A DNA stretch of 26,894 nucleotides, taken from positions 1 to 26,894 of the IMG/VR virus record IMGVR_UViG_3300034280_000269; one strand, given 5' to 3'. This document shows positions 9,368-23,479 of the stretch, piece after piece. Both the position numbers and the translations under genes were made by a program. The notes beneath the pieces are model-generated. The model saw only the letters and a program-made list of their open reading frames with translations. It was not told the DNA's origin and made no database searches. Each line of letters begins with the position of its first letter. The first letter of the stretch is position 1. This DNA is from a virus.

Positions 9368-11059
9368 ATGGCTGACAACAAGCTGGAAATTGAGATCATC
9401 GACGATGGGGATGGTGGTGCAACATCACTGTCCCCCGATGATTTCTCATCAATTCGTGAGTTCAACAAGGCATTAGCCCGGTTGAAAGCCGAAACTCGTG
9501 CGCAAGAGTTTGAAGCCAGTCAGGAGTTGAAAGCTCGTCGAGCCAATCTCAAGAATCAAAAGGCAACTTTGGATGAAGAGAAGCAGGCTCGAAAGACTGG
9601 CGTTGAACAGATCCGCATGGAGGTTCAGGAACGCAAAGCACGACGACAGCTTGATGTAGTTGTTCAACAGGAAGAACGGGCGCGAGAAGCCGAGATCAAC
9701 AAACGTGATCGACATCGGGAAATGATGTTGCGTCACATCCTGGGTGCAGTCAATCCAAACTCCACCTTCCAATACCGGATGAGCAGCATCTACGGTTTGC
9801 TCAACACGGCTGGGGTTACTTCCTCCAGAGAAAGTTCTGGCGAGGAAAATGAAAATGGTGAACGTGGTGTCTATGACCGAGTTCATGACATCATGGAAGC
9901 GGCTGCATCAGGCATCAAAAGCCTGTTTGGTCAAACAACCACATTCTTTGCTTCATTGTTTGGCAAAGCTGCACTGTCCTCTGTTGTTTCACCAACATCA
10001 TCACCAAATGTTCCACCGATTGATCCAGCTTCAACACAAGAACTGGTCATGCCCGGTGAAACAGAAACAGACATGCCGTGGTGGTGGAGCTATCGACCAC
10101 AAAAGTTTCGTCCCAAATGGTACATCGAATCAATGCGCCCCAGTGGTGCATTGAATGCTGGTAGCCAAATGATGGGAATGGCTATTCCACCAGTCCCAGT
10201 TAATCCATACCCAACCGCAGCAGGTGGTGCTGGTGGTGGAGGTGCAATTCCTCCAATCGCAGCAGGTGGTGGTGGAGGTACAATTCCTCCAATTGCTGCT
10301 GGTGCAAGTCCTGGTGGTCAAGGTGGTGGTGGTGGAAGCGGAAAATTCTTAGCGGCAGGAATTGCCCTTCGTGGAATGTCAGCATTAGGTCTTGGCATTG
10401 CCGGTTTCGCAGCAGGAGCATTGGTTGCAACAACTGCTCTGACTGCACTCTATGGGGCAACCAATCTTCTTTCCAGAAGGTTTGTTGGTGTGGCTGATGA
10501 AATTGGTCAATGGTCGATTGCAATGACCATGGCAAAAACTGAAACCACTCTCCGAACCATGGCATTTAACATGGAACGGGCAAACAGGTTTGGTGAGCAG
10601 TTTGCTGAGTTCGAGAAAGCAAAGACTACAGCCAACATTGGGATGGCTAAGTTGTATGACTCAATCACAATGCCATTCATGCCTCTGGTAACAGGGTCAT
10701 ACAATCTTCTGGGAAAGATTGCTGATGGTCTTAGTGAATTGATCGACATGGCATTCACCTTTACTGGTGGAAGGTTTGTGCTTGATCTCCTTGGTGAGTT
10801 CGCCGGTAATACCATCCCCGGAATCTGGGAAGGTCTTAACAACCCAGATGGAACCCGTGGTGCTGGAGCGTTCATTAAACTCCTTCAAGACATTTTCCGT
10901 GTGCTTAACCGCAACCTTGGAATTGGTAATGGGCCATCACAAGGCGAGTTGACTGCTTCTTCCCAGTTGGCAGCGTTCCTCAACATGCCAATTTCAAATC
11001 AGATTGATCGTGTTCGTGTTAGTGGGTTCCAAGGTTTTGCTGGTGACATAGGACTGTAA
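9368..11059 (+). CDS. Tape-measure-like tail protein
   Basis: A 563-residue protein. Residues about 30-120 are strongly charged and helical (long coiled coil). About 285-325 is Gly/Pro-rich with a doubled IPPIAAGGGGG unit. About 327-368 is a strongly hydrophobic segment (IALRGMSALGLGIAGFAAGA) that could cross a membrane. The rest is helical with Phe-rich stretches. This coiled coil plus hydrophobic segment layout is typical of tape measure proteins, which set tail length and may enter the host membrane during DNA delivery. It is short for the class. By the rough rule of about 0.15 nm per residue the tail would be about 85 nm, which is only an estimate. No lysozyme or peptidase domain is evident. 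Confidence 0.68.
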   Translation: MADNKLEIEIIDDGDGGATSLSPDDFSSIREFNKALARLKAETRAQEFEASQELKARRANLKNQKATLDEEKQARKTGVEQIRMEVQERKARRQLDVVVQQEERAREAEINKRDRHREMMLRHILGAVNPNSTFQYRMSSIYGLLNTAGVTSSRESSGEENENGERGVYDRVHDIMEAAASGIKSLFGQTTTFFASLFGKAALSSVVSPTSSPNVPPIDPASTQELVMPGETETDMPWWWSYRPQKFRPKWYIESMRPSGALNAGSQMMGMAIPPVPVNPYPTAAGGAGGGGAIPPIAAGGGGGTIPPIAAGASPGGQGGGGGSGKFLAAGIALRGMSALGLGIAGFAAGALVATTALTALYGATNLLSRRFVGVADEIGQWSIAMTMAKTETTLRTMAFNMERANRFGEQFAEFEKAKTTANIGMAKLYDSITMPFMPLVTGSYNLLGKIADGLSELIDMAFTFTGGRFVLDLLGEFAGNTIPGIWEGLNNPDGTRGAGAFIKLLQDIFRVLNRNLGIGNGPSQGELTASSQLAAFLNMPISNQIDRVRVSGFQGFAGDIGL

Positions 11060-13386: not shown

Positions 13387-13664
13387 CACCATTAGTTGAG
13401 TTTGCCTGCCAGTTTGGAGTTGAATCCATCCCTGACAGACTGCTCAACGATGATGTCATGTATATCCTTCAGTTAGAAGCCGACAAGATCAACGCTTACA
13501 AAGAAGCGAGGGTCAGGTCGGCTTCAGGTCCACTCACAGCAGATGGTATTTACAATCTTGTCCTTCGGGCAACAGGTGACTTGTATCAAGCAGAATTGAT
13601 GAAAGCCAAATTCATCAACGAGGAAAGAAAACATGCCGCGCGAAGTTCTGGTCAACATCAATGA
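13383..13664 (+). CDS. Downstream frame of the frameshift pair (gpT-like)
   Basis: A 93-residue frame. Its only upstream start is TTG 13383, which overlaps the preceding TGA and has no ribosome site, so translation by -1 frameshifting from the gene before is more likely than independent initiation. It contains LVEFACQFGVESI, ADKINAYKEARVRSASGPL and YNLVLRATGDLYQAELMKAKF. It is helical and soluble, with no recognised enzymatic motif. The last 32 bases overlap the portal gene. Confidence 0.6.
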   Translation: MTPLVEFACQFGVESIPDRLLNDDVMYILQLEADKINAYKEARVRSASGPLTADGIYNLVLRATGDLYQAELMKAKFINEERKHAARSSGQHQ

Positions 13665-14931
13665 CCTCTTAAACACCCAAGTCACTGACTACGTTCCCGG
13701 CACCTACTGGGCACAATGGGGCTACACCCGCAACCGTCCCCTCTTCAACACTTACACCATCCGGGAGATGTTGATTGACCCCCGAGTTCGCTTTGGACTC
13801 TGGATCATCAAAGGTCACCTGATGGCAAAGGCCAAGTTCAAGGTTGAATCCGACACCCCAGATGTTCAAGAGTTTGTCCAAGACCAGATCAAACGATTCT
13901 GGAAGCAGGGTGTCACCCAAGCTCTCAAGGCAATCGAATGGGGCTACAGCGGCGCAGAGGTCCAATACGAGCAGGACGAAAAGACTGGCCGAGTGGTCTA
14001 TGCCAAGCTCAATGACTTCGAGCCCCCATCAGTCAAGATTGTCACCAACAAGGGTGAACGGGTTGGTCTGTTGGTATCCAACTATCAAACGATCAACATG
14101 GCTCCCGGCAAAGCAATCTACCTTGGTGGTCCCAAGGCATTCCACCATGTCCATTGGAAGGAATACAACAAGCACTACGGTCTGTCCCGACTCTATGCTG
14201 CCCACGTTCCATGGAATGAAATCTGGTCTGAAGGTGGCTACCGGGATGTTCGTCGGTTGTGGTTCTACAAGAACGCATTTGAAGGTGGCATCATGCGACA
14301 CCCTCAAGGAACCGTCAAACTCCCCAGTGGCCAGGTTCGCTCCTACCAAGACATCGCTCAGGAGATGATTGAGAAGAAGCGAGCTGGAGCTGTTTTGACT
14401 CTCCCCTCCGACACCGATCAACGTGGCAACCCGCGCTGGGATTATGAGCCAGCCAAAGGCAACACCATCCCGGCTGGTCTGTTTGAATACGGTCAGTCCC
14501 TTCGAGTCGAGATCCTTGAAGCCTTGGGCATTCCTCCCGAGGTCATCGAGTCATCCGGCTCCCAAGGGTTCGGCTCCTCATCCGGCAGAAGTATCCCCGA
14601 GGATGCTTTCTACTCGGTCCTCTTCGAGCTGCTGCTGAACCTGACCAACGATGTTGTGGAACAGATCGTTCGTCCGTTGGTTCAAATCAACGCACAACTG
14701 GGCCTGCTCCCCTACGACACCTTCGATGTGATGCCCTTCCCCCTCAATTCGATGCCGGGCAATGGGATGACCGATGGGGAGCTGTTCCCGACCGATGAAA
14801 TGCTCAACCCCATGGCAGCAATGGGCCAGCAACCGGGTCAACCGGGACAGCCCGGTACGCCCCCCGTTGAAGGGGATGAAGATGAGGTTCCAGCTGATGA
14901 GGCTACCCCTGACCTTGGATTGGTGGCTTAA
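13633..14931 (+). CDS. Phage portal protein (Mu gp29 / DUF935-like)
   Basis: A 432-residue protein from ATG 13633, with GAGGAAAG just upstream. Portal signatures are RFGLWIIKGHLM near the start, IEWGYSGAEVQYE (about 101-113), FHHVHWKEYNKHYGLSRLY (about 170-188) and WFYKNAFEGGIM (about 210-221). The part ILEALGIPPEVIESSGSQGF (about 294-313), followed by a helical stretch ending in VRPLVQIN, matches the gp29-like type. The C-terminus is a Pro/Gln-rich disordered tail. The portal forms the dodecameric DNA gateway of the capsid. No terminase or capsid gene is adjacent, which is unusual. Confidence 0.85.
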   Translation: MPREVLVNINDLLNTQVTDYVPGTYWAQWGYTRNRPLFNTYTIREMLIDPRVRFGLWIIKGHLMAKAKFKVESDTPDVQEFVQDQIKRFWKQGVTQALKAIEWGYSGAEVQYEQDEKTGRVVYAKLNDFEPPSVKIVTNKGERVGLLVSNYQTINMAPGKAIYLGGPKAFHHVHWKEYNKHYGLSRLYAAHVPWNEIWSEGGYRDVRRLWFYKNAFEGGIMRHPQGTVKLPSGQVRSYQDIAQEMIEKKRAGAVLTLPSDTDQRGNPRWDYEPAKGNTIPAGLFEYGQSLRVEILEALGIPPEVIESSGSQGFGSSSGRSIPEDAFYSVLFELLLNLTNDVVEQIVRPLVQINAQLGLLPYDTFDVMPFPLNSMPGNGMTDGELFPTDEMLNPMAAMGQQPGQPGQPGTPPVEGDEDEVPADEATPDLGLVA

Positions 14932-14953
14932 CACCCCCGTATTCTTCGCAAAA

Positions 14954-14999
14954 AGGGGTCACCAGCGTTAGATCGACCCCTAATTGGTGTCACAACACC
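14954..14999 (+). terminator. Two short hairpins after the portal gene
   Basis: AGGGGTC (14954-14960) pairs with GACCCCT (14975-14981), 7 bp. It is followed by GGTGT (14986-14990) and ACACC (14995-14999), a 5-bp stem with a CACA loop. They start 23 bases after the portal stop and could end the structural transcript, but there is no U-tract, so intrinsic termination is uncertain. Confidence 0.35.
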
Positions 15000-15074
15000 C
15001 TGAACCCCTGATCGTGCGTTATAGGTCAAATTTAGAGGCTACCCCCGGCACCCCCCTATCTCTGGAGGAAAACC

Positions 15075-15242
15075 ATGCCCGAGGGATTTCCCGGATTTTC
15101 CCGGTCCATGGTGTTGACAAACCGGCGTGGGAAGGGGTACAAACCGAGCGCAGCGAGGTTTGGGGGGTTGGGTGATGGAGGTAGGGCGCAGAATAACAGT
15201 AGATCACTAGCGCAGTATGTATCAACCTATGGAAACATGTAA
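15075..15242 (+). CDS. Possible 55-residue small basic protein
   Basis: ATG 15075 follows a GGAGG ribosome site (15064-15068) at ideal spacing, and the frame runs to TAA at 15240. The peptide begins MPEGFPGFSRSMVL, is rich in Gly, Ser and Arg, and shows no known domain. It overlaps a promoter-like sequence, a perfect small hairpin and the left arm of a large palindrome, which suggests that the DNA is mainly regulatory. I keep it as a low-confidence gene because the ribosome site is so good. Confidence 0.3.
   Translation: MPEGFPGFSRSMVLTNRRGKGYKPSAARFGGLGDGGRAQNNSRSLAQYVSTYGNM
15114..15143 (+). promoter_or_regulatory. Sigma70-like promoter before the mucin-like gene
   Basis: A perfect -35 hexamer TTGACA (15114-15119), an 18-base spacer and TACAAA (15138-15143, 4 of 6 matches to TATAAT). 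Transcription would begin near 15150 and give a 5' leader of about 240 bases containing the large palindrome and the ribosome-site hairpin. It is a plausible start point for the 15392-21677 cassette. Planctomycete promoter rules are poorly known. Confidence 0.45.
15140..15162. repeat. GNA-loop mini-hairpin (copy 1)
   Basis: CAAACC and GGTTTG form a 6-bp stem. Inside come GA opposite GA (tandem sheared G-A pairs), GC opposite GC, and a GCA loop. This is the architecture of the unusually stable GNA-loop hairpins. A second element of the same plan forms the tip of the nearby long palindrome (15247-15265). Confidence 0.6.
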
Positions 15243-15308
15243 TTACTTCCGAACGTAGTGAGGAATAATTACATGTTGGAATAGGTTAGATACTACAAGC
15301 TAGTGATC
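15202..15308. repeat. 107-base imperfect palindrome capped by a GNA-loop mini-hairpin
   Basis: The outer arms GATCACTAGC (15202-15211) and GCTAGTGATC (15299-15308) are perfectly complementary. Moving inward, 15219-15223 pairs with 15289-15293 (5 bp), 15224-15230 with 15281-15287 (7 bp), and 15234-15245 with 15266-15277 (12 bp). TTCC/GGAA (15247-15250, 15262-15265) then leads to tandem GA/GA, AC/GT and a GTA loop. About 40 base pairs form in all, interrupted by a GGA/GGA internal loop and small bulges. As RNA it would be a long rod in the leader of the downstream gene; as DNA it could extrude a cruciform or serve as a protein-binding site or origin. It is not a tRNA. Confidence 0.75.
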
Positions 15309-15343
15309 AACCAGTTATCAATAACAACTACCAATGGTTGATT

Positions 15344-15386
15344 GATCCTGTAACATGATCCTGAACCAATCACAGGACCAAGGATC
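15344..15386 (+). promoter_or_regulatory. Possible ribosome-site sequestering leader
   Basis: The ribosome site of the 15392 gene lies in AGGATC (15381-15386). Two upstream copies of GATCCTG (15344-15350 and 15357-15363) each contain its exact complement GATCCT. A competing stem, TCCTG (15359-15363) with CAGGA (15373-15377), would free the site. The layout could switch translation of the surface protein on and off. This is inferred from complementarity only. Confidence 0.4.
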
Positions 15387-15391
15387 AGCCA

Positions 15392-18094
15392 ATGGCATCA
15401 GCTTTCATCTCTCTCGGTGGTGTTTACTGCGTCATCCCCGATGACAACCTTCTTCTCTTCCTCCAGAAAAACGGCATCCGGCTTGGGTTCAAGTTGGTTG
15501 GTGGGAGGATGTCAGGTTACGGTCATGTCCTGCTGCTGAAGGATGACCTCGATGGGTTGGTCAACCGTGACAACCTTGAATTGAAAATGTCAGATGGTGA
15601 ACGCTCAATCACCATCAACAACCTGATGATTGTGGAAGTGACCGCTTCCAATCCAATCAAGAATCAGAATCAGCTTTATGTTGCCAAGATCGCTGATCAG
15701 CGTCATGTTGCTTTTCAGCATGAAACCAGGTTGACGTTCGACCCGTTTCCTCCTCACGAAAAGTACGACCAGTCCGGTCGAGCAACATCTTGGCTTTCCG
15801 CGCTGGAAGGCTATTGGAACAACAGCAACATCAATTCAGTATGGGCTTCTGTTGAAAAGTCTGAAGCTGATTTCCCGAGCATCATGCTGCGGGATGTTGC
15901 AACCCAGACAACCAATTCTGATTGGAACATGCTGAATGATGTCTTGCAGCTTTCATCACATCAGCTTTACAAGCGTCATGGCTCGGGCAACACATTCAGA
16001 ATTGTTCGTAATGGTTATATCAATCAAGATAATCTGGATTTGTTCGACGAGCATGAAGGCAGGCTGGTTCAACGTAAGTTAAACACGGACATCTACGCTC
16101 CCTATCTTCCAGAAGAATTGCATGTGAAGTATCGGCAATTCAATTCATCATTCTGGAATGATCCGATTGTCTGCACTGAGGCATATTCGGGCTCAGAGAC
16201 ATTCAAACCGGGGATGTCAAAGGATCTGAATGTTTACAATATCTATGACCCGGATCATTCTCGCGCCAGTGATTACCTTATCGAGCTGACAATCCTGGCC
16301 TGCATTCTCAGCAAACTTTACTACGACACCTTCACTGATCTTCATCGCCGTGATGCTGTCTACTTTGGAATCATTCCATTCGAGCCTGATGCCTCTTGCC
16401 ACAGCATCGAGTTCTTCCATGGTTTCATCGGTGGTGAAGCCGGGATGTTCACTGAAGTCAAATCTCTTGACATGTCAAACTACCAGTTCCCGGAGTTTGA
16501 CCGCGAGATTGAAATTTTCATGGAGCAGTTTGACTCGGCAACGACGACAACGACATCTCAGGTTCTTGGTTCACCGCAAGTTTGCGAAGGTGAATGTAAG
16601 TGGCAATGGGATGAAGCATTGCTGCAATGGATTCAGGTTGATGAGATTGGTTACGGTTGTGCAAATGTTGTTTCATCAACATCATCAACCAGTTCAACAT
16701 CAACCCCGAACCCACTGTTTGCTGATTGCTATACCACTCACAGTTCAACGACATCAACCACAACATCTCCAGCTTGTGATTGCTTGCATCCTGATTTCTG
16801 TGGTGAGAATGATGGTGACATCACGATTACTTTCTGTACCAACAATCCTGATGACAACGAACCACCATACTGCTCAACCACGACATGTGATTGCAACACA
16901 ACAACGACCAAGCCATTCATCAGTTGCGCATCAAGACCTGGATGTGATTACGCTGCCTATTACGACTGGTCAAACACTTCATGCAACCCACCAATTGTTT
17001 GGTATCTGACCAATTGGCAATGTGGTGTTGGTGTTGACAACAGAACTCCTGATTACTGTCAGCAAGATTACAACTATTGCTGCTCTGACACTGACCAAGA
17101 CAATGATTGCTTGGTATGTGGGTGTAATGGTTCTTTGCCATCAGAACCCGAGTGTGGTGATACATACCATCTTGGTTGCGCTGGTGACTGCGTGAATGTT
17201 TCGTCCTGCTGCCAGGGTACATGTGTTTGGCTGTGGGTGCCCTGTGAAAATGGTCTTATTCTAATTAGCGGTGATGACAATTGGGGTGGAGAGTTTTGTT
17301 GGTACTTAAAATGTGAGGAATGTTCATCATTCTCTTGTGACCAGAATGACACTGGTGTATGCCGGTGTGTAACTCCTCCATCAGTTGAGACACCTGACCC
17401 ATGCAAGATTTACTACACAACCTGTGAAGGTGATCGTGGGTGTGAACCATGTGAGGATTGCTATACCACAACAACCACACCACCATGGCGATGTGACTAC
17501 TGCATTCGTCGTTCGTCAGATGGATCATTCTGGGATGAGATCATCGTTGATGAATGCGACTCACCGTGTTACTGCGGCATTCCTTCCAGAGATCCTGTTG
17601 GAGGTGGTGATACAGCTAGGGTTGGTTGTCTTGAGTCAACAACTTCAACCAGCACCACAACGTCATCCACAACCACCTCAACAACTGTTGCACCAACTGG
17701 TGCATGTTGTGAATGCCCTGCTGATGGGTGTACCGTTCTCACTGAAGCAAGTTGCACACTTTGCGGTGGAATCTGGCAGGGAGCCGGGACTGTTTGTGAC
17801 GAGTGTTATGGCGATTGTACGGGAACCTGTGTTTACAGTTGCGTGAACAATCAATATGTGCTAGTATCCTCTGACTGTGACGCTGGTGCATTGATTCAGT
17901 GCGAATGCCCTGCTGGGATTGCTGGAACGTACTGTGATGACCCGGCTACACATCCTTGTGCTAGACCGTCAACAACCACCAGCACAACACCAGCACCGGC
18001 GACTACAACAACTACCACAACCACAACAACAACCACTACTACAACAACAACTTCTTCTACAACGACTTCCACGACTAACATTGTTCCAGGATAA
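15392..18094 (+). CDS. 900-residue mucin-like Cys-rich, Thr-rich virion surface protein
   Basis: ATG 15392 follows AAGGA at good spacing. Residues 1 to about 382 form a globular domain with few Cys, which I do not recognise; it may be the virion anchor. From about 383 on, Cys-dense modules alternate with Thr/Ser linkers: SSTSSTSSTST (about 428-438), HSSTTSTTTS (about 450-459), STTSTSTTTSSTTTSTT (about 749-765) and a C-terminal tract at 860-895 with 17 Thr in a row. The module at about 769-805 (GACCECPADGC...CTLCGGIWQGAG) resembles Cys-rich modules of secreted planctomycete proteins. The many Cys suggest disulphides outside the cell, and the Thr/Ser linkers look like O-glycosylation targets. 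The next genes encode sugar-modifying enzymes. No signal peptide is seen, which fits a virion protein. Confidence 0.75.
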   Translation: MASAFISLGGVYCVIPDDNLLLFLQKNGIRLGFKLVGGRMSGYGHVLLLKDDLDGLVNRDNLELKMSDGERSITINNLMIVEVTASNPIKNQNQLYVAKIADQRHVAFQHETRLTFDPFPPHEKYDQSGRATSWLSALEGYWNNSNINSVWASVEKSEADFPSIMLRDVATQTTNSDWNMLNDVLQLSSHQLYKRHGSGNTFRIVRNGYINQDNLDLFDEHEGRLVQRKLNTDIYAPYLPEELHVKYRQFNSSFWNDPIVCTEAYSGSETFKPGMSKDLNVYNIYDPDHSRASDYLIELTILACILSKLYYDTFTDLHRRDAVYFGIIPFEPDASCHSIEFFHGFIGGEAGMFTEVKSLDMSNYQFPEFDREIEIFMEQFDSATTTTTSQVLGSPQVCEGECKWQWDEALLQWIQVDEIGYGCANVVSSTSSTSSTSTPNPLFADCYTTHSSTTSTTTSPACDCLHPDFCGENDGDITITFCTNNPDDNEPPYCSTTTCDCNTTTTKPFISCASRPGCDYAAYYDWSNTSCNPPIVWYLTNWQCGVGVDNRTPDYCQQDYNYCCSDTDQDNDCLVCGCNGSLPSEPECGDTYHLGCAGDCVNVSSCCQGTCVWLWVPCENGLILISGDDNWGGEFCWYLKCEECSSFSCDQNDTGVCRCVTPPSVETPDPCKIYYTTCEGDRGCEPCEDCYTTTTTPPWRCDYCIRRSSDGSFWDEIIVDECDSPCYCGIPSRDPVGGGDTARVGCLESTTSTSTTTSSTTTSTTVAPTGACCECPADGCTVLTEASCTLCGGIWQGAGTVCDECYGDCTGTCVYSCVNNQYVLVSSDCDAGALIQCECPAGIAGTYCDDPATHPCARPSTTTSTTPAPATTTTTTTTTTTTTTTTTSSTTTSTTNIVPG
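17969..18076 (+). repeat. Low-complexity ACN-triplet tract (poly-Thr)
   Basis: An imperfect ACA/ACC/ACT triplet run near the 3' end of the mucin-like gene, encoding residues 860-895. It includes 17 consecutive Thr codons that use ACA, ACC and ACT in irregular order. The mixed synonymous codons suggest selection for the Thr sequence rather than simple recent slippage. Confidence 0.8.
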
Positions 18095-18099
18095 GCCCG

Positions 18100-20139
18100 A
18101 TGAAAAATATCCTCACTGTTGGGATGGCTGTGCATGATGACTTCAAGATGCTCTGGGCTACAGTCCAAGCATTGAAACTTGAAATCCTCAAGTTCAATCT
18201 CCCGGTTGAAATTCTTGTTGTTGACAACGCACCAAACACTGTTGATGGTCGAAAGACCAAGACGTTCATTGAGAACTACGGTGGACCGACTCGTTGCAGG
18301 TATGCTGTTTGCCCTGCTGAATTGTTTGGGACAACACAACCACGACAGACAGTTTTTGAATTGTCTGATACCGAGTGGACCATGTGCATTGATTCGCACA
18401 TTCTGCTTTGGCCGGGTGCATTGCAGCAATTGGTTCAGTGGTTGCAAACAGCTCAGTCAGAACCGTTTGTGGATGACTTGCTGAGTGGCCCAATCATGAT
18501 GGATGAACTCCAGACATCAGCAACACATTTCAATCTGATCTGGGATGCTGAGATGTGGGGTAAGTGGGGAACCGCTTGGTGGGACCGTGTGAGCATGGGT
18601 TACTTCTCGGTTATCCAGCATCCAATCGAAGATGCGATGTGCAAGTTCATTTCTCTTTCTCCAGAGATCACTGATTACAAATTTCCTGCTGATGCAATGC
18701 CAAGAAAGGTGATGTATTACGGGCATGAAAGCCATCTTAATCAGCTTGGGTTCAGGACTGCTGTTGATATGGGCTACCCATTTGAGATCCCGGCAATGGG
18801 TCTTGGTTTGTTCTTGGCACGAACAAAGTCATGGCTCGGGTTTAACAAGAACATGCGAGGATTTGGTGGTGAGGAAGGTTACATTCACACCAAGTACCGG
18901 AATGCAGGGCGACGTTGCATTTGCCTCCCGTGGTTGCGGTGGGTTCACAAGTTCAACGGTCCCGAGGACATCAACTATTCCGTTGATCGTCGCAACAAGG
19001 TTCGGAACTATGTTCTTGGATTCAATGAAGTTGGCTTGCCATTGAAGCCAGTGTTCGATCACTTCATTGCCACCAAACTTCTTCCACAGCAAATTTGGGA
19101 CAGCATCATTATCGACCCTGTTGGTTACAAGGCTGTCAAAACAATTTCACCGAAGGAATCTCTGGAGAAGAAGGGGGCAACACAAGCCAAACTTGAGATG
19201 CCCAATCTCAGTCATTGTTCAATCCAAGACCTGTTTGAATACTTCAAGCAGGAGCCACGGGATTTGGACAAGCATCTTGAAACTCTAAAGACTGTCGCTG
19301 AACAGAGCAGGACTGTTGTTGAATTGACCCACCGGAGGGAATCAAGCGTTGCTTTTCTTGCGGGTGGTCCTGACTTGCTGGTTTCTTACCAGTCAGAGAA
19401 TGACCACGTAGTTGATGCTCTCAGTGGTGTCTTGATGAGAACATCGTTTCCATCAACTGTGTCTTGGACCAAGGTTGGTGTGTTGAACCATACCAATCTG
19501 GACTTCAGCAACTTGCCTGAAAAGTTTGGTGCGCTGTTCATTGACATTGATGGGTTGTCATCGTCACTTGAAAAGTACCTGAATAAACTACACAAGTCAG
19601 TCACAAGGTTCATTGTCATCCATGACACATTTATCTACGGTGACATTGATGCTTCAGCCTCAAAGGGTTTGAACTATGTCATCCGCGCTTTCTGTGAGGA
19701 CAACCCGCAATGGGAACCCGTGTTCTACACATCCAACCAATATGGGATGACCGTTCTTGGGTGCCAGGATCAGGATCGGCCTAAGAAGAAAATCATGGCT
19801 TGGAAAGTCGGCAAAGGTCCTGGGACTGAGCTGAAGAAGATGAACGCTGAGTTGGGCATCAAGCCTGCTGAGAATTGCTCCTGCAATCGTCTTGCTGCTG
19901 AGATGGATTGGCTTGGTGTTGAAGGATGCAAAAGCGAACGGGACAAGTTTGTTCTCGGGCTCAAGCAGAACTCTTTGCAATACAAATGGACTGACTTGAT
20001 GATGGCTGGTATCCGTTCGGCAACCTGCTCATTCGTAACCAAGATCAATCCTTTGGATGTGTATGGTTCGATGGTGGATGAGGCTATCAGAAGGGCTGAA
20101 GAAAATGAGCGACAAGGATCTGGTTCTACAGCGGTGTAA
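18100..20139 (+). CDS. Multidomain protein glycosyltransferase (DxH type) fusion
   Basis: A 679-residue protein starting five bases after the mucin-like gene. Residues 1 to about 300 are a GT-A glycosyltransferase: VGMAVHDDFKMLWATV (about 7-22), VEILVVDNAPN (36-46), a nucleotide-sugar/metal motif IDSH (97-100) and FGGEEGYIHTKYRNAG (about 255-270), followed by CLPWLRWVHKF. A DxH plus GGEx plus VH set is what polypeptide GalNAc-transferases and Skp1-type GlcNAc-transferases show, and both glycosylate protein Ser, Thr or hydroxyproline. Residues about 400-560 look like a Rossmann, methyltransferase-like or second nucleotide-binding domain (GALFIDIDGLSSSL, TRFIVIHDTF). Residues about 572-625 (KGPGTELKKMNAELGI...CSCN...MDWLG) form a small Cys-containing domain often attached to phage and planctomycete glycosyltransferases. 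The likely acceptor is the upstream Thr-rich protein. Confidence 0.75.
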   Translation: MKNILTVGMAVHDDFKMLWATVQALKLEILKFNLPVEILVVDNAPNTVDGRKTKTFIENYGGPTRCRYAVCPAELFGTTQPRQTVFELSDTEWTMCIDSHILLWPGALQQLVQWLQTAQSEPFVDDLLSGPIMMDELQTSATHFNLIWDAEMWGKWGTAWWDRVSMGYFSVIQHPIEDAMCKFISLSPEITDYKFPADAMPRKVMYYGHESHLNQLGFRTAVDMGYPFEIPAMGLGLFLARTKSWLGFNKNMRGFGGEEGYIHTKYRNAGRRCICLPWLRWVHKFNGPEDINYSVDRRNKVRNYVLGFNEVGLPLKPVFDHFIATKLLPQQIWDSIIIDPVGYKAVKTISPKESLEKKGATQAKLEMPNLSHCSIQDLFEYFKQEPRDLDKHLETLKTVAEQSRTVVELTHRRESSVAFLAGGPDLLVSYQSENDHVVDALSGVLMRTSFPSTVSWTKVGVLNHTNLDFSNLPEKFGALFIDIDGLSSSLEKYLNKLHKSVTRFIVIHDTFIYGDIDASASKGLNYVIRAFCEDNPQWEPVFYTSNQYGMTVLGCQDQDRPKKKIMAWKVGKGPGTELKKMNAELGIKPAENCSCNRLAAEMDWLGVEGCKSERDKFVLGLKQNSLQYKWTDLMMAGIRSATCSFVTKINPLDVYGSMVDEAIRRAEENERQGSGSTAV

Positions 20140-20704
20140 GAACATCGGTGGGTGGATGTACGATGAGGAACTTCTTTGGCTGAACAAGACAGCTAATGAA
20201 TGTTCTCTGGTGGTTGAGATTGGCGTGTGGCAAGGTAAAAGCACAACTGCACTTGCATTGGGCTTGCCACAAAATGGCAGGTTGTTCTGCATTGATTCAT
20301 GGCAAGGTTCAGATGATGAACTCCATGCAGCGCATTCAATCATGCAGACCACTGAAGGTCAGAAGTCAGTGTTCCTCAACGCAATGGACAACTTGTTTGA
20401 GTTCATTGTGATGGGCAAGGTTGTTCCAATCTGCATGAAGTCGATTGAAGCATGTCACCTGTTTCAAGACACGTTTGTTGATGACATTGACTTTGTGTTC
20501 ATCGACGGTTCGCATGATTACTTGAACGTCAAGCAGGACATTGCAACTTGGTTCCCGATGACCCATTCAAACAGCATCATCGCTGGTCATGATTACGGTT
20601 CATTCGAGGGAGTCACCAAAGCTGTCAACGAAGAGTTTGGCGGCAAGGTCAAGCGTGGTCCCGGTAGCATTTGGTACGTTGATCGCTCGGAACTCCCATC
20701 ATGA
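20105..20704 (+). CDS. Class I SAM-dependent methyltransferase
   Basis: A 199-residue protein. ATG 20105 is preferred over 20057 because the upstream extension is basic and would overlap the previous gene more deeply; 20105 overlaps it by 35 bases. Motif I is VVEIGVWQGKSTTALALGL (about 36-54), with LFCIDSWQGS (60-69) for motif II and IDFVFIDGSHDYLNVKQDI (about 128-146) for the acidic/His region, followed by IIAGHDY. This matches the Methyltransf_24-like small-molecule or sugar O-methyltransferase group. The stop overlaps the next start (ATGA). I infer that it methylates the glycan made by the flanking transferases. Confidence 0.82.
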   Translation: MSDKDLVLQRCKNIGGWMYDEELLWLNKTANECSLVVEIGVWQGKSTTALALGLPQNGRLFCIDSWQGSDDELHAAHSIMQTTEGQKSVFLNAMDNLFEFIVMGKVVPICMKSIEACHLFQDTFVDDIDFVFIDGSHDYLNVKQDIATWFPMTHSNSIIAGHDYGSFEGVTKAVNEEFGGKVKRGPGSIWYVDRSELPS

Positions 20705-21435
20705 AAATCTCCTGTCTGCTTCCAACTTACAACAGGTTTCCACATGAAGGTCATCTTGTCTGTGAGGCTGTCAATTCATTCCTGAATCAAGGCTACAAAG
20801 ACAAGGAACTGATCGTCTGCAACGATACACCAGGTCAGGAGATTTGGTTTAATCATCCATCAGTCAAGATACTCAACGTACCGGAGCGATTTGAAACTCT
20901 GACCCACAAATTGAGGTTCATGATCGCTCACGCTGATGGTGATGCGTTCTGTCGTTGGGATGACGATGACATTTCTCTCCCTTGGCGGCTTGCTCTTTCT
21001 TCCAGAAACATGGAAGGAAAGGATGAATGGAGATGTGAAAAGCATTTCTATTCTGAGAACAATCACATCAAAAAGATAACCATGTACCCCGGCAACTCGC
21101 ACAACATGAGTATCTGGTCAAGGACTGTTCTTGCAAAGTTTGGTAATGGTTACCCGATGCACTCCCAAGTGATGGGTGACGAGGACCAGACATTTAATCG
21201 TGCATTGGTCCAAATGGGCTACCCGATTAACGGTGAAGAGATTGACCCAAAGATGATTTTCTACATCTATCGTTGGGGAGTTTCATCCAACCATTTGTCA
21301 GCCAACATGAACAAGTGGAAGCAGATTGGTCAGGCTCCAGTTGTCAAAGGTTCGTTCAAGATTGAACCTCAATGGCAGCTCAATTATGTCAAGCAGATGT
21401 CAGACTATCTTCGAGCTGTTGGGTATAGCTTGTGA
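20701..21435 (+). CDS. Family 2 glycosyltransferase
   Basis: A 244-residue GT-A enzyme. MKISCLLPTYNRFPHEGHLV (1-20) is the classic nucleotide-sugar binding start, followed by VNSFLNQGYKDKELIVCND (about 24-42) and the acidic CRWDDDDISLPWR (84-96), the DxD-equivalent metal site. MGDEDQTFNRALVQMG (about 158-173) is a probable catalytic base region. It has no transmembrane helix, so it acts in the cytoplasm. The gene is coupled to the methyltransferase (ATGA) and to the next gene (GTGA). It probably adds a second sugar to the modified protein; the donor sugar cannot be read from the sequence. Confidence 0.85.
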   Translation: MKISCLLPTYNRFPHEGHLVCEAVNSFLNQGYKDKELIVCNDTPGQEIWFNHPSVKILNVPERFETLTHKLRFMIAHADGDAFCRWDDDDISLPWRLALSSRNMEGKDEWRCEKHFYSENNHIKKITMYPGNSHNMSIWSRTVLAKFGNGYPMHSQVMGDEDQTFNRALVQMGYPINGEEIDPKMIFYIYRWGVSSNHLSANMNKWKQIGQAPVVKGSFKIEPQWQLNYVKQMSDYLRAVGYSL

Positions 21436-21840: not shown

Positions 21841-21885
21841 CTCAAATCTCCTGTCTAAAAGTGACGGTAGCTGCCATCGTCAGAC

Positions 21886-21903
21886 CACCCGCACTACCGG
21901 GTG
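21886..21903 (-). repeat. Perfect 6-bp hairpin between the two - strand genes
   Basis: CACCCG (21886-21891) and CGGGTG (21898-21903) flank a 6-base loop. With the UUCG hairpin next to it and a weaker imperfect stem at about 21863-21881, it forms a structured spacer that could set the ratio of helicase to small-protein mRNA. Confidence 0.5.
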
Positions 21904-21906
21904 ATG

Positions 21907-21922
21907 ACACCCCGAAGGGTGT
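21907..21922 (-). terminator. C(UUCG)G tetraloop hairpin after the helicase gene
   Basis: Read on the - strand, ACACCC-UUCG-GGGUGU is a 6-bp stem closed by the exceptionally stable UUCG tetraloop, starting 6 bases after the helicase stop codon. No U-run follows on that strand. It may be a partial terminator, an RNA-processing site or a 3' end stabiliser, since the next gene on this strand begins only 67 bases further on. Confidence 0.45.
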
Positions 21923-21928
21923 TTCGGC

Positions 21929-23479
21929 TTAGTTGAACTCGGGTTCCATTTCCTTTGCTTCGCTGACCAGAATCAGTCGATGCTTGCTGCGAGTCTCAGC
22001 AACGTAGATCAGGTTCAATTCCTGCTGCTTCTCCCAAGGCTTCTTTGCCATCGGGTGAGGCATCTTCTCGCGTCCAAGGATGAACACGTTGTCCGACTCC
22101 AAACCCTTTGCCTTGTGAACTGTTGACAGTGTAACAGACTTGTCAGCGGTCAGCTTGCTGCTGAACAGGCTGTCAATCCGATCAACCAGCTTGGTCACCG
22201 TATCAAGCCCACCAGTCAGGTAGACGAGCGATTGGTACTTCTCTGCCAGAAGTTGCAACTGCTTGTCAGGGAAGGTGTAGGCTTTGTTGATGCGAGCCTC
22301 TTCTTCACCACGCCAAGTCTTGAGGGTTTCCACCAAGGTCTTGATCTTGTCGTCAGTGTCCAACTTCTTGACCAAGCTGATGAGGTTTGCCCCGTAGTCA
22401 CGACCAAGAATCCGGCAGGGTGTGCCATTGCGAATCAGGCGGAAAGCTGCTGCACAAAGGTTGGCATTGACCCGGCTGATAACCATGTCACCAATCTTGG
22501 CTTGGGCTGTCAGGTCATCAGCTTCACTGTGTTCGATGATACCTTCCTCTGCGATGTCTGCTGCCTTGATGTCAGCAACATACTTGTTGACGTTGACGAC
22601 ATGAGACTTGGGGCAACGCCAAGTGGTTGTCAGCGTCAACTTCTTGACACCAACCTTGGTTGCACTCAGGTATTCTTCCATGCGTTCCATTGACTTGACA
22701 TCAGCTCCACGAAACCCGTAGATGCTCTGGAATGAGTCACCGATCAGAATCAAACGCTTTGCCATCTTCAGGACCATCTGTTGCTGTGAGCAATTCAAAT
22801 CCTGGCACTCATCCACGATCATCAGGTCAAACTTGTCGTAGTTCAATTCCATGACATTGGGCAACCAGATCATGTCATCGAAGCTGATCCAGTTCACCTT
22901 GCCCTTGACCAGCTTGAGTGACTTCTCCATCACTTGCTTGACCAAGTTGAACACCTGTGGCTTGTTGCCGTTGACATCAACATCATTCTCGTTGATGACC
23001 ATCTCCAACTCTTCGTCAGACCAACCAATCAGGTTGTTCTTGAGGATGGCAACGATCTTCTCAACCACCATGCTATCCCGGTAATCTTCCTTGGACATGC
23101 TGGTTCCCTTTGCATAGCCAAGCAGGTCACGAACCATGTAGCGAGTGGTTTCACTCCCGGCTTGAATCCGATAACCGTTCTTGGCGAGGATGCTGTAGCC
23201 CAAGCCATGCAGGGTCTTGGCAGTCACACCGCTTGGAACCTTCTGCTCCAGCTCCAATTGGATCGACTTGTTGAATGCGACGAAGATGATTTCATCAGGC
23301 TTGCCACCTGCTGCCATCTCGTCCCAGATTGCCTGTTGTTCATCAGTGCCTTTGAACTTGGGCTTGTTGCCGAACATCAGGTTCAGACCGGCAATCATGG
23401 TGCTGGTCTTGCCAGTCCCAGCGCGGGCTTCAACGATAATGTGCGACTGAGTGTTCTTCTTCTTGATCTTGTACGCCAT
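21929..23479 (-). CDS. UvrD/Rep-type superfamily 1 DNA helicase
   Basis: A 516-residue protein from ATG 23479, chosen because a GGAG ribosome site lies upstream on this strand; extension to 23614 would add 45 residues unlike the family. All SF1 motifs are visible: Walker A ARAGTGKTS (18-26), FVAFNKS (66-72), TLHGLGYSIL (89-98), Walker B DECQDLN (223-229), IGDSFQSIYGFRGAD (246-260), TTTWRCP (284-290), STVHKAKGLESDN (452-464) and IYVAETRSKHRLILV (491-505). It should unwind DNA 3' to 5' using ATP in replication, repair or recombination. It is shorter than UvrD, as expected for compact phage versions. It is transcribed away from the recombination operon. Confidence 0.92.
   Translation of the reverse strand: MAYKIKKKNTQSHIIVEARAGTGKTSTMIAGLNLMFGNKPKFKGTDEQQAIWDEMAAGGKPDEIIFVAFNKSIQLELEQKVPSGVTAKTLHGLGYSILAKNGYRIQAGSETTRYMVRDLLGYAKGTSMSKEDYRDSMVVEKIVAILKNNLIGWSDEELEMVINENDVDVNGNKPQVFNLVKQVMEKSLKLVKGKVNWISFDDMIWLPNVMELNYDKFDLMIVDECQDLNCSQQQMVLKMAKRLILIGDSFQSIYGFRGADVKSMERMEEYLSATKVGVKKLTLTTTWRCPKSHVVNVNKYVADIKAADIAEEGIIEHSEADDLTAQAKIGDMVISRVNANLCAAAFRLIRNGTPCRILGRDYGANLISLVKKLDTDDKIKTLVETLKTWRGEEEARINKAYTFPDKQLQLLAEKYQSLVYLTGGLDTVTKLVDRIDSLFSSKLTADKSVTLSTVHKAKGLESDNVFILGREKMPHPMAKKPWEKQQELNLIYVAETRSKHRLILVSEAKEMEPEFN

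What the first reader, a model, noticed from the sequence alone, without database searches (positions are those of the whole stretch)
15202..15308. 107-base imperfect palindrome in the leader of the mucin-like gene
About 40 base pairs form with perfect 10-, 12- and 7-bp blocks and a symmetric GGA/GGA internal loop, in the only long non-coding gap of the window. The size and order are far beyond chance. It may be a structured leader RNA, a protein-binding or packaging element, an origin, or the remnant of a miniature mobile element.
Basis: seen in the sequence. Interest (0 to 1): 0.75.

Follow-up and report, generated by a model that had tools for sequence, protein, structure and literature searches.

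The report
Conserved hairpin in a phage leader
A long hairpin in the gap before a phage structural gene is real and kept, with matched changes on both arms, in the one related virus found, so it is probably a regulatory fold in that gene's messenger RNA, although a DNA-level role or a self-repairing neutral palindrome is not excluded.

Summary
Bases 15202-15308 form a 43-bp hairpin (RNA fold z about -10). It is the only strong local inverted repeat in the window: 61.7 bits, against at most 41.9 in 40 shuffles. The 460-bp gap that holds it is the longest non-coding gap.

A second virus (two near-identical IMG/VR contigs, about 70% nucleotide identity) has a 44-bp hairpin at the same place, between the portal gene and the Thr-rich gene. 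In a rung-by-rung alignment 32 pairs are unchanged, 6 are changed on both sides and none on one side only. Both hairpins end in the same sense-strand cap, GARCGNAGYGA. The cap also tops a small hairpin about 94 nt upstream and occurs nowhere else in either record. In both viruses the downstream gene's ribosome-binding site is the least accessible of the starts tested.

Distant portal relatives, three of which also keep the downstream gene, lack the hairpin. No copies turned up elsewhere, and there is no Rfam, phage or plasmid match.

Best reading: a genus-level 5'-leader element acting as RNA (processing or insulation plus a closed ribosome site). The absence of G-U pairs in 87 bp leaves open DNA-level function or template-switch repair. 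Only two independent sequences exist; mechanism stays inferred.

The parts
15202..15308 (+). Main hairpin, 43 bp
15193..15318 (+). Weak outward extension of the stem
15251..15261 (+). Cap GAACGTAGTGA (tandem GA, A-T and C-G pairs, GTA triloop); conserved in L003 as GAACGAAGTGA
15231..15233 (+). 5' side of the GGA x GGA internal loop (3' side 15278-15280); in L003 this place is a 7x6 loop
15215..15222 (+). GTA-T-GTAT with one bulged T, paired with 15290-15296; same motif in L003
15140..15162 (+). Small hairpin with cap GAGCGCAGCGA, 6-bp stem; counterpart in L003 around the cap at 9771-9781
15344..15386 (+). Local pairing that occludes the Shine-Dalgarno (AAGGA, 15380-15384)
   Evidence: prediction only
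13633..14931 (+). Portal gene upstream (Portal_Mu, phrog_113)
15392..18094 (+). 900-aa Thr/Ser- and Cys-rich gene downstream; its N-terminal part has homologues after the portal in L003, L011, L012, L018

Best explanation
The feature is a genuine, selected hairpin in the 5' leader (or portal-to-next-gene spacer) of a virion-gene transcript in one genus-level group of uncultured tailed phages. It most likely acts as RNA on the sense strand. The long stem, capped by a rigid GNA-triloop/tandem-GA loop, would insulate or separate the portal message from the Thr-rich gene's message (a double-stranded stem of this length would be a natural substrate for host RNase III) and would work with the downstream pairing that closes the ribosome site to hold down or time synthesis of the 900-aa protein. 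Shown: the hairpin, its conservation in one relative, the shared caps. Predicted by folding: the occluded ribosome site. Inferred: transcription through it, RNase III cleavage, translational control.
For: An orthologous hairpin lies at the same place in L003/L004 (z -12.7 for L003:9818-9940). Rung alignment: 32 same, 6 changed on both sides, 0 one-sided, 11 unaligned. On an alignment made from sequence alone, 6 pairs change on both sides and 81% of cells pair, against at most 2 pairs and 46% when slid. The cap motif GARCGNAGYGA occurs exactly twice in each record, always in this leader and always on the sense strand, with the variable base at the triloop N; the reversed control pattern occurs 0 times in both. 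The + strand scores above the - strand with the covariance model (91.1 vs 34.3 bits in the window; the model was built from these two sequences on the + strand). The ribosome site of the downstream gene is the least accessible of 19 starts tested in the window (0.22) and of 6 in L003 (0.02). Flanking genes are on the + strand. RNA helices that close the ribosome site are known in T4 genes e, soc, 49 and I-TevI (PMC3014915).
Against: There are only two independent sequences, so covariation is thin: on the sequence-only alignment 14 of 500 column shuffles reach it. None of the 87 pairs is G-U, against 12.6% in ordinary folds of this genome, which is unusual for an RNA under RNA-only selection. 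The GNA triloop is a well-known stable DNA hairpin cap (own knowledge), so the cap does not prove RNA. The segments that close the ribosome site differ between the two viruses. No + strand sigma-70-type promoter was found upstream. There is no expression evidence.
Confidence: 0.45

Rival explanations
1. Self-maintaining quasi-palindrome: DNA polymerase template switching keeps rewriting one arm from the other, so the arms stay complementary with little or no function.
For: No G-U pairs in 87 and no one-sided changes, only double changes. Template switching is documented to create and maintain perfect stems with instantaneous double changes (PMC8794818). Absent in distant syntenic phages.
Against: The cap, the bulged-T motif and the 28-29 nt spacings are conserved, and a separate small hairpin with the same cap accompanies it; pure arm copying should also erase bulges and internal loops.
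Confidence: 0.2
2. DNA-level element: the segment extrudes as a cruciform or folds on single-stranded DNA during replication or packaging and is read as structure by a phage or host protein.
For: All pairs Watson-Crick; AT-rich stem (35% GC against 49% for the window); GNA-triloop caps are exceptionally stable in DNA (own knowledge); the genome encodes a RusA-like resolvase.
Against: Cap is strand-specific and on the sense strand in both viruses; no origin or packaging signature seen; no GC-skew switch at the site; attC cores absent.
Confidence: 0.2
3. Remnant of a miniature mobile element or an insertion-prone site product.
For: The same gap holds an endonuclease-like minus-strand ORF in L011 and small ORFs in L018.
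Against: No copies anywhere searched; arms diverged in step between two viruses at the same place, which independent insertions would not give.
Confidence: 0.06
4. Transcription terminator or attenuator at the end of the portal transcript.
For: Position after the portal gene.
Against: No U run after either hairpin on the + strand; terminator scan negative there in both.
Confidence: 0.05

Closest known systems
T4 leader structures that close the ribosome-binding site (genes e, soc, 49, I-TevI; PMC3014915)
   Same: Phage mRNA leader in which a helix occludes the Shine-Dalgarno of the gene
   Different: Here the closing pairing is separate from a much longer upstream hairpin; no promoter inside the helix was identified
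RNase III processing hairpins of T7 and lambda mRNAs (own knowledge)
   Same: Long stem with internal loops between genes of one likely transcript
   Different: About 43 bp, all Watson-Crick outside defined loops; cleavage not tested
Quasi-palindromes and RNA stems maintained by template switching (PMC8794818)
   Same: Perfect pairing, double changes, no one-sided intermediates
   Different: Conserved cap, bulge and spacing point to selection as well
GNA-triloop mini-hairpins (GCGAAGC type) and phage N4 promoter hairpins (own knowledge)
   Same: C-GNA-G triloop cap
   Different: Stem is far longer; as far as I recall the orientation relative to transcription does not fit an N4 promoter, and no virion RNA polymerase was recognised in the window

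Membership tests
Described RNA families (Rfam 15) | Score at or above a family's gathering threshold | tested here: not met
   Only Hammerhead_II elsewhere in the window; permissive scan of the gap gives only sub-threshold hits
Structured leader RNA (general kind) | Pairing conserved with compensatory changes in relatives | tested here: met
   6 double changes, 0 one-sided, but one relative only
Structured leader RNA (general kind) | Transcribed as part of the downstream gene's mRNA | not testable with these tools
   Uncultured virus, no RNA data; gene orientation is compatible
T4-type translational leader | Shine-Dalgarno or start codon held in a helix | tested here: met
   By prediction only: lowest accessibility of all starts tested in both viruses
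T4-type translational leader | A downstream or internal late promoter gives a second transcript without the closing strand | tested here: inconclusive
   Only sigma-70-type consensus was scanned; no + strand match
RNase III processing site | Cleavage in the stem by RNase III | not testable with these tools
   Stem length compatible; no experiment
Intrinsic terminator | GC-rich stem followed by a U run on the sense strand | tested here: not met
Miniature mobile element | Copies at unrelated loci | tested here: not met
Integron attC site | RYYYAAC / GTTRRRY cores at the two ends of the imperfect palindrome | tested here: not met
   In the window one GTTRRRY inside the stem only, no paired cores at the ends; none in L003

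The most novel reading that the evidence does not exclude
A new class of phage structural element with a recurrent GA-RC-GNA-GY-GA cap on tandem hairpins, read as a folded single strand of DNA or RNA by a phage protein to time virion-gene expression or genome handling.
Probability: 0.15. Interest if true: 0.6.

Novelty: new member of a known kind. Interest (0 to 1): 0.36.

Why it matters
It is an undescribed conserved hairpin in an uncultured phage group, with a clean pattern (double changes only, no G-U) that bears on how long perfect stems persist: by selection on RNA, by DNA structure, or by template-switch repair. It also points to leader control of a large Thr-rich, probably virion, protein.

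Tried and rejected
Rfam search, gathering and permissive. Copies in own and related records: none. Hairpin motif scan of viral contigs found only the known relative. blastn of the gap in phages and of the hairpin in plasmids, and tblastn of the portal and of the Thr-rich gene's N-terminus in phages: none. Further relatives by the Thr-rich gene and by portal alignment: only L003/L004. A portal segment found distant relatives without the hairpin. GTDB genome contigs gave no relatives. The 17-mer CGTTATAGGTCAAATTT hits in L021 and L022 look like chance: no other similarity. Structure prediction of the gene's N-terminal domain failed (mean pLDDT 36), so no fold search was made. The small ORF 15075-15242 does not keep its frame in the relative (read by eye).

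Full report
Observation. The segment 15202-15308 folds as a 43-bp hairpin with every pair Watson-Crick, a GGA x GGA internal loop (15231-15233 / 15278-15280), a bulged T, and an 11-nt cap GAACGTAGTGA. MFE for 15192-15318 is -55 kcal/mol, z -10.2; DNA parameters give z -10.4. A minus-strand self-comparison reports this as the window's only local inverted repeat; 40 dinucleotide shuffles of the whole window reach at most 41.9 bits against 61.7. It lies in the longest gap between main ORFs, 14932-15391, between a portal gene and a 900-aa gene with Cys-rich and Thr/Ser-rich segments.

Relatives. Two IMG/VR contigs, 99.99% identical to each other over 21 kb and so counted as one virus, carry the same genes: portal 88% identical, N-terminal domain of the next gene 73%, about 70% nucleotide identity over the aligned stretches. 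In L003 a 44-bp hairpin sits at 9821-9937 in the same gap and is the only local inverted repeat of that locus. A rung-by-rung alignment gives 32 identical pairs, 6 with both sides changed, 0 with one side changed, 11 unaligned. On the MAFFT alignment, which knows no structure, the window's pairs show 6 double changes and 81% paired cells, against 0-2 and 28-46% for slid partners. Lengths from the bulge motif GTATGTAT to the cap, and from the cap to ATACTAC, are 28-29 and 28 nt in both (read).

Cap motif. GARCGNAGYGA, that is GA, an R-Y and a C-G pair, a GNA triloop, and GA, tops both big hairpins and also a small hairpin 93-94 nt upstream (window 15140-15162). Across the three distinct loops R-Y covaries and only N varies freely. 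In the two whole records (26.9 and 46.9 kb) the motif occurs exactly twice each, only here and only on the sense strand, and the reversed control pattern 0 times.

Distant relatives. A conserved portal segment found eight further virus contigs beyond L003/L004. Homologues of the next gene follow the portal in L011, L012 and L018, but none of the distant loci has the hairpin; in L012 the gap is about 30 bp. So the element belongs to the window's own genus-level group as far as sampled. In L011 the gap holds a minus-strand ORF resembling phage endonucleases.

Leader. The ribosome site of the 900-aa gene is predicted to be occluded in both viruses, the lowest of 19 starts tested in the window and of 6 in L003, by local pairings whose sequences differ. 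In L003 the big hairpin's 3' arm could also pair with the ribosome site (-22.6 kcal/mol), so removing the 5' arm alone would not open it. The scan found no sigma-70-type match on the + strand, although TTGACA at the same place is conserved.

Mechanism. The sense-strand cap, gene orientation and the occluded ribosome site favour an RNA leader element. RNase III processing or insulation is inferred from stem length. The main reservation is the complete absence of G-U pairs in 87 pairs, where folds in this genome average 12.6%; taking about 55 pairs as independent, chance would be under 0.1% (own arithmetic). Template switching yields that pattern and is documented for RNA stems (PMC8794818), and a DNA-level role would too. 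Conserved bulge, cap and spacing argue that the structure is selected, whatever the mutational route.

Status. No described RNA family matches and no copies were found elsewhere. It is filed as a new member of a known kind, a phage leader hairpin, with mechanism unproven and only two independent sequences behind it.

Noticed in passing
window 21865-21929, - strand: Hammerhead ribozyme type II above Rfam's gathering score (46.9 vs 37 bits), directly after the stop of the minus-strand helicase gene; no hammerhead hit in the corresponding stretch of L003.
   Followed up: partly
L011:10404-10868, - strand: A minus-strand ORF with weak similarity to phage endonucleases/DUF1064 sits in the same portal-to-next-gene gap of a distant relative, suggesting an insertion-tolerant site.
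   Followed up: partly
L003:9915-9960 and 9985-10004: In the relative the 3' arm of the hairpin is complementary to the ribosome site and start region of the next gene (duplex -22.6 kcal/mol); a possible alternative fold, not seen in the same form in the window.
   Followed up: partly
window 15014-15036 and 15114-15119: Conserved non-coding blocks around CGTTATAGGTCAAATTT and TTGACA upstream of the hairpins; possible promoter or operator, no scan match.
   Followed up: partly
window 15156-15186: G-rich tract between the two hairpins (also in L003), possibly able to form a G-quadruplex.
   Followed up: no
window 18100-21432: Two glycosyltransferase-2 domains and a methyltransferase directly after the Thr-rich gene; they might modify that protein.
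   Followed up: no
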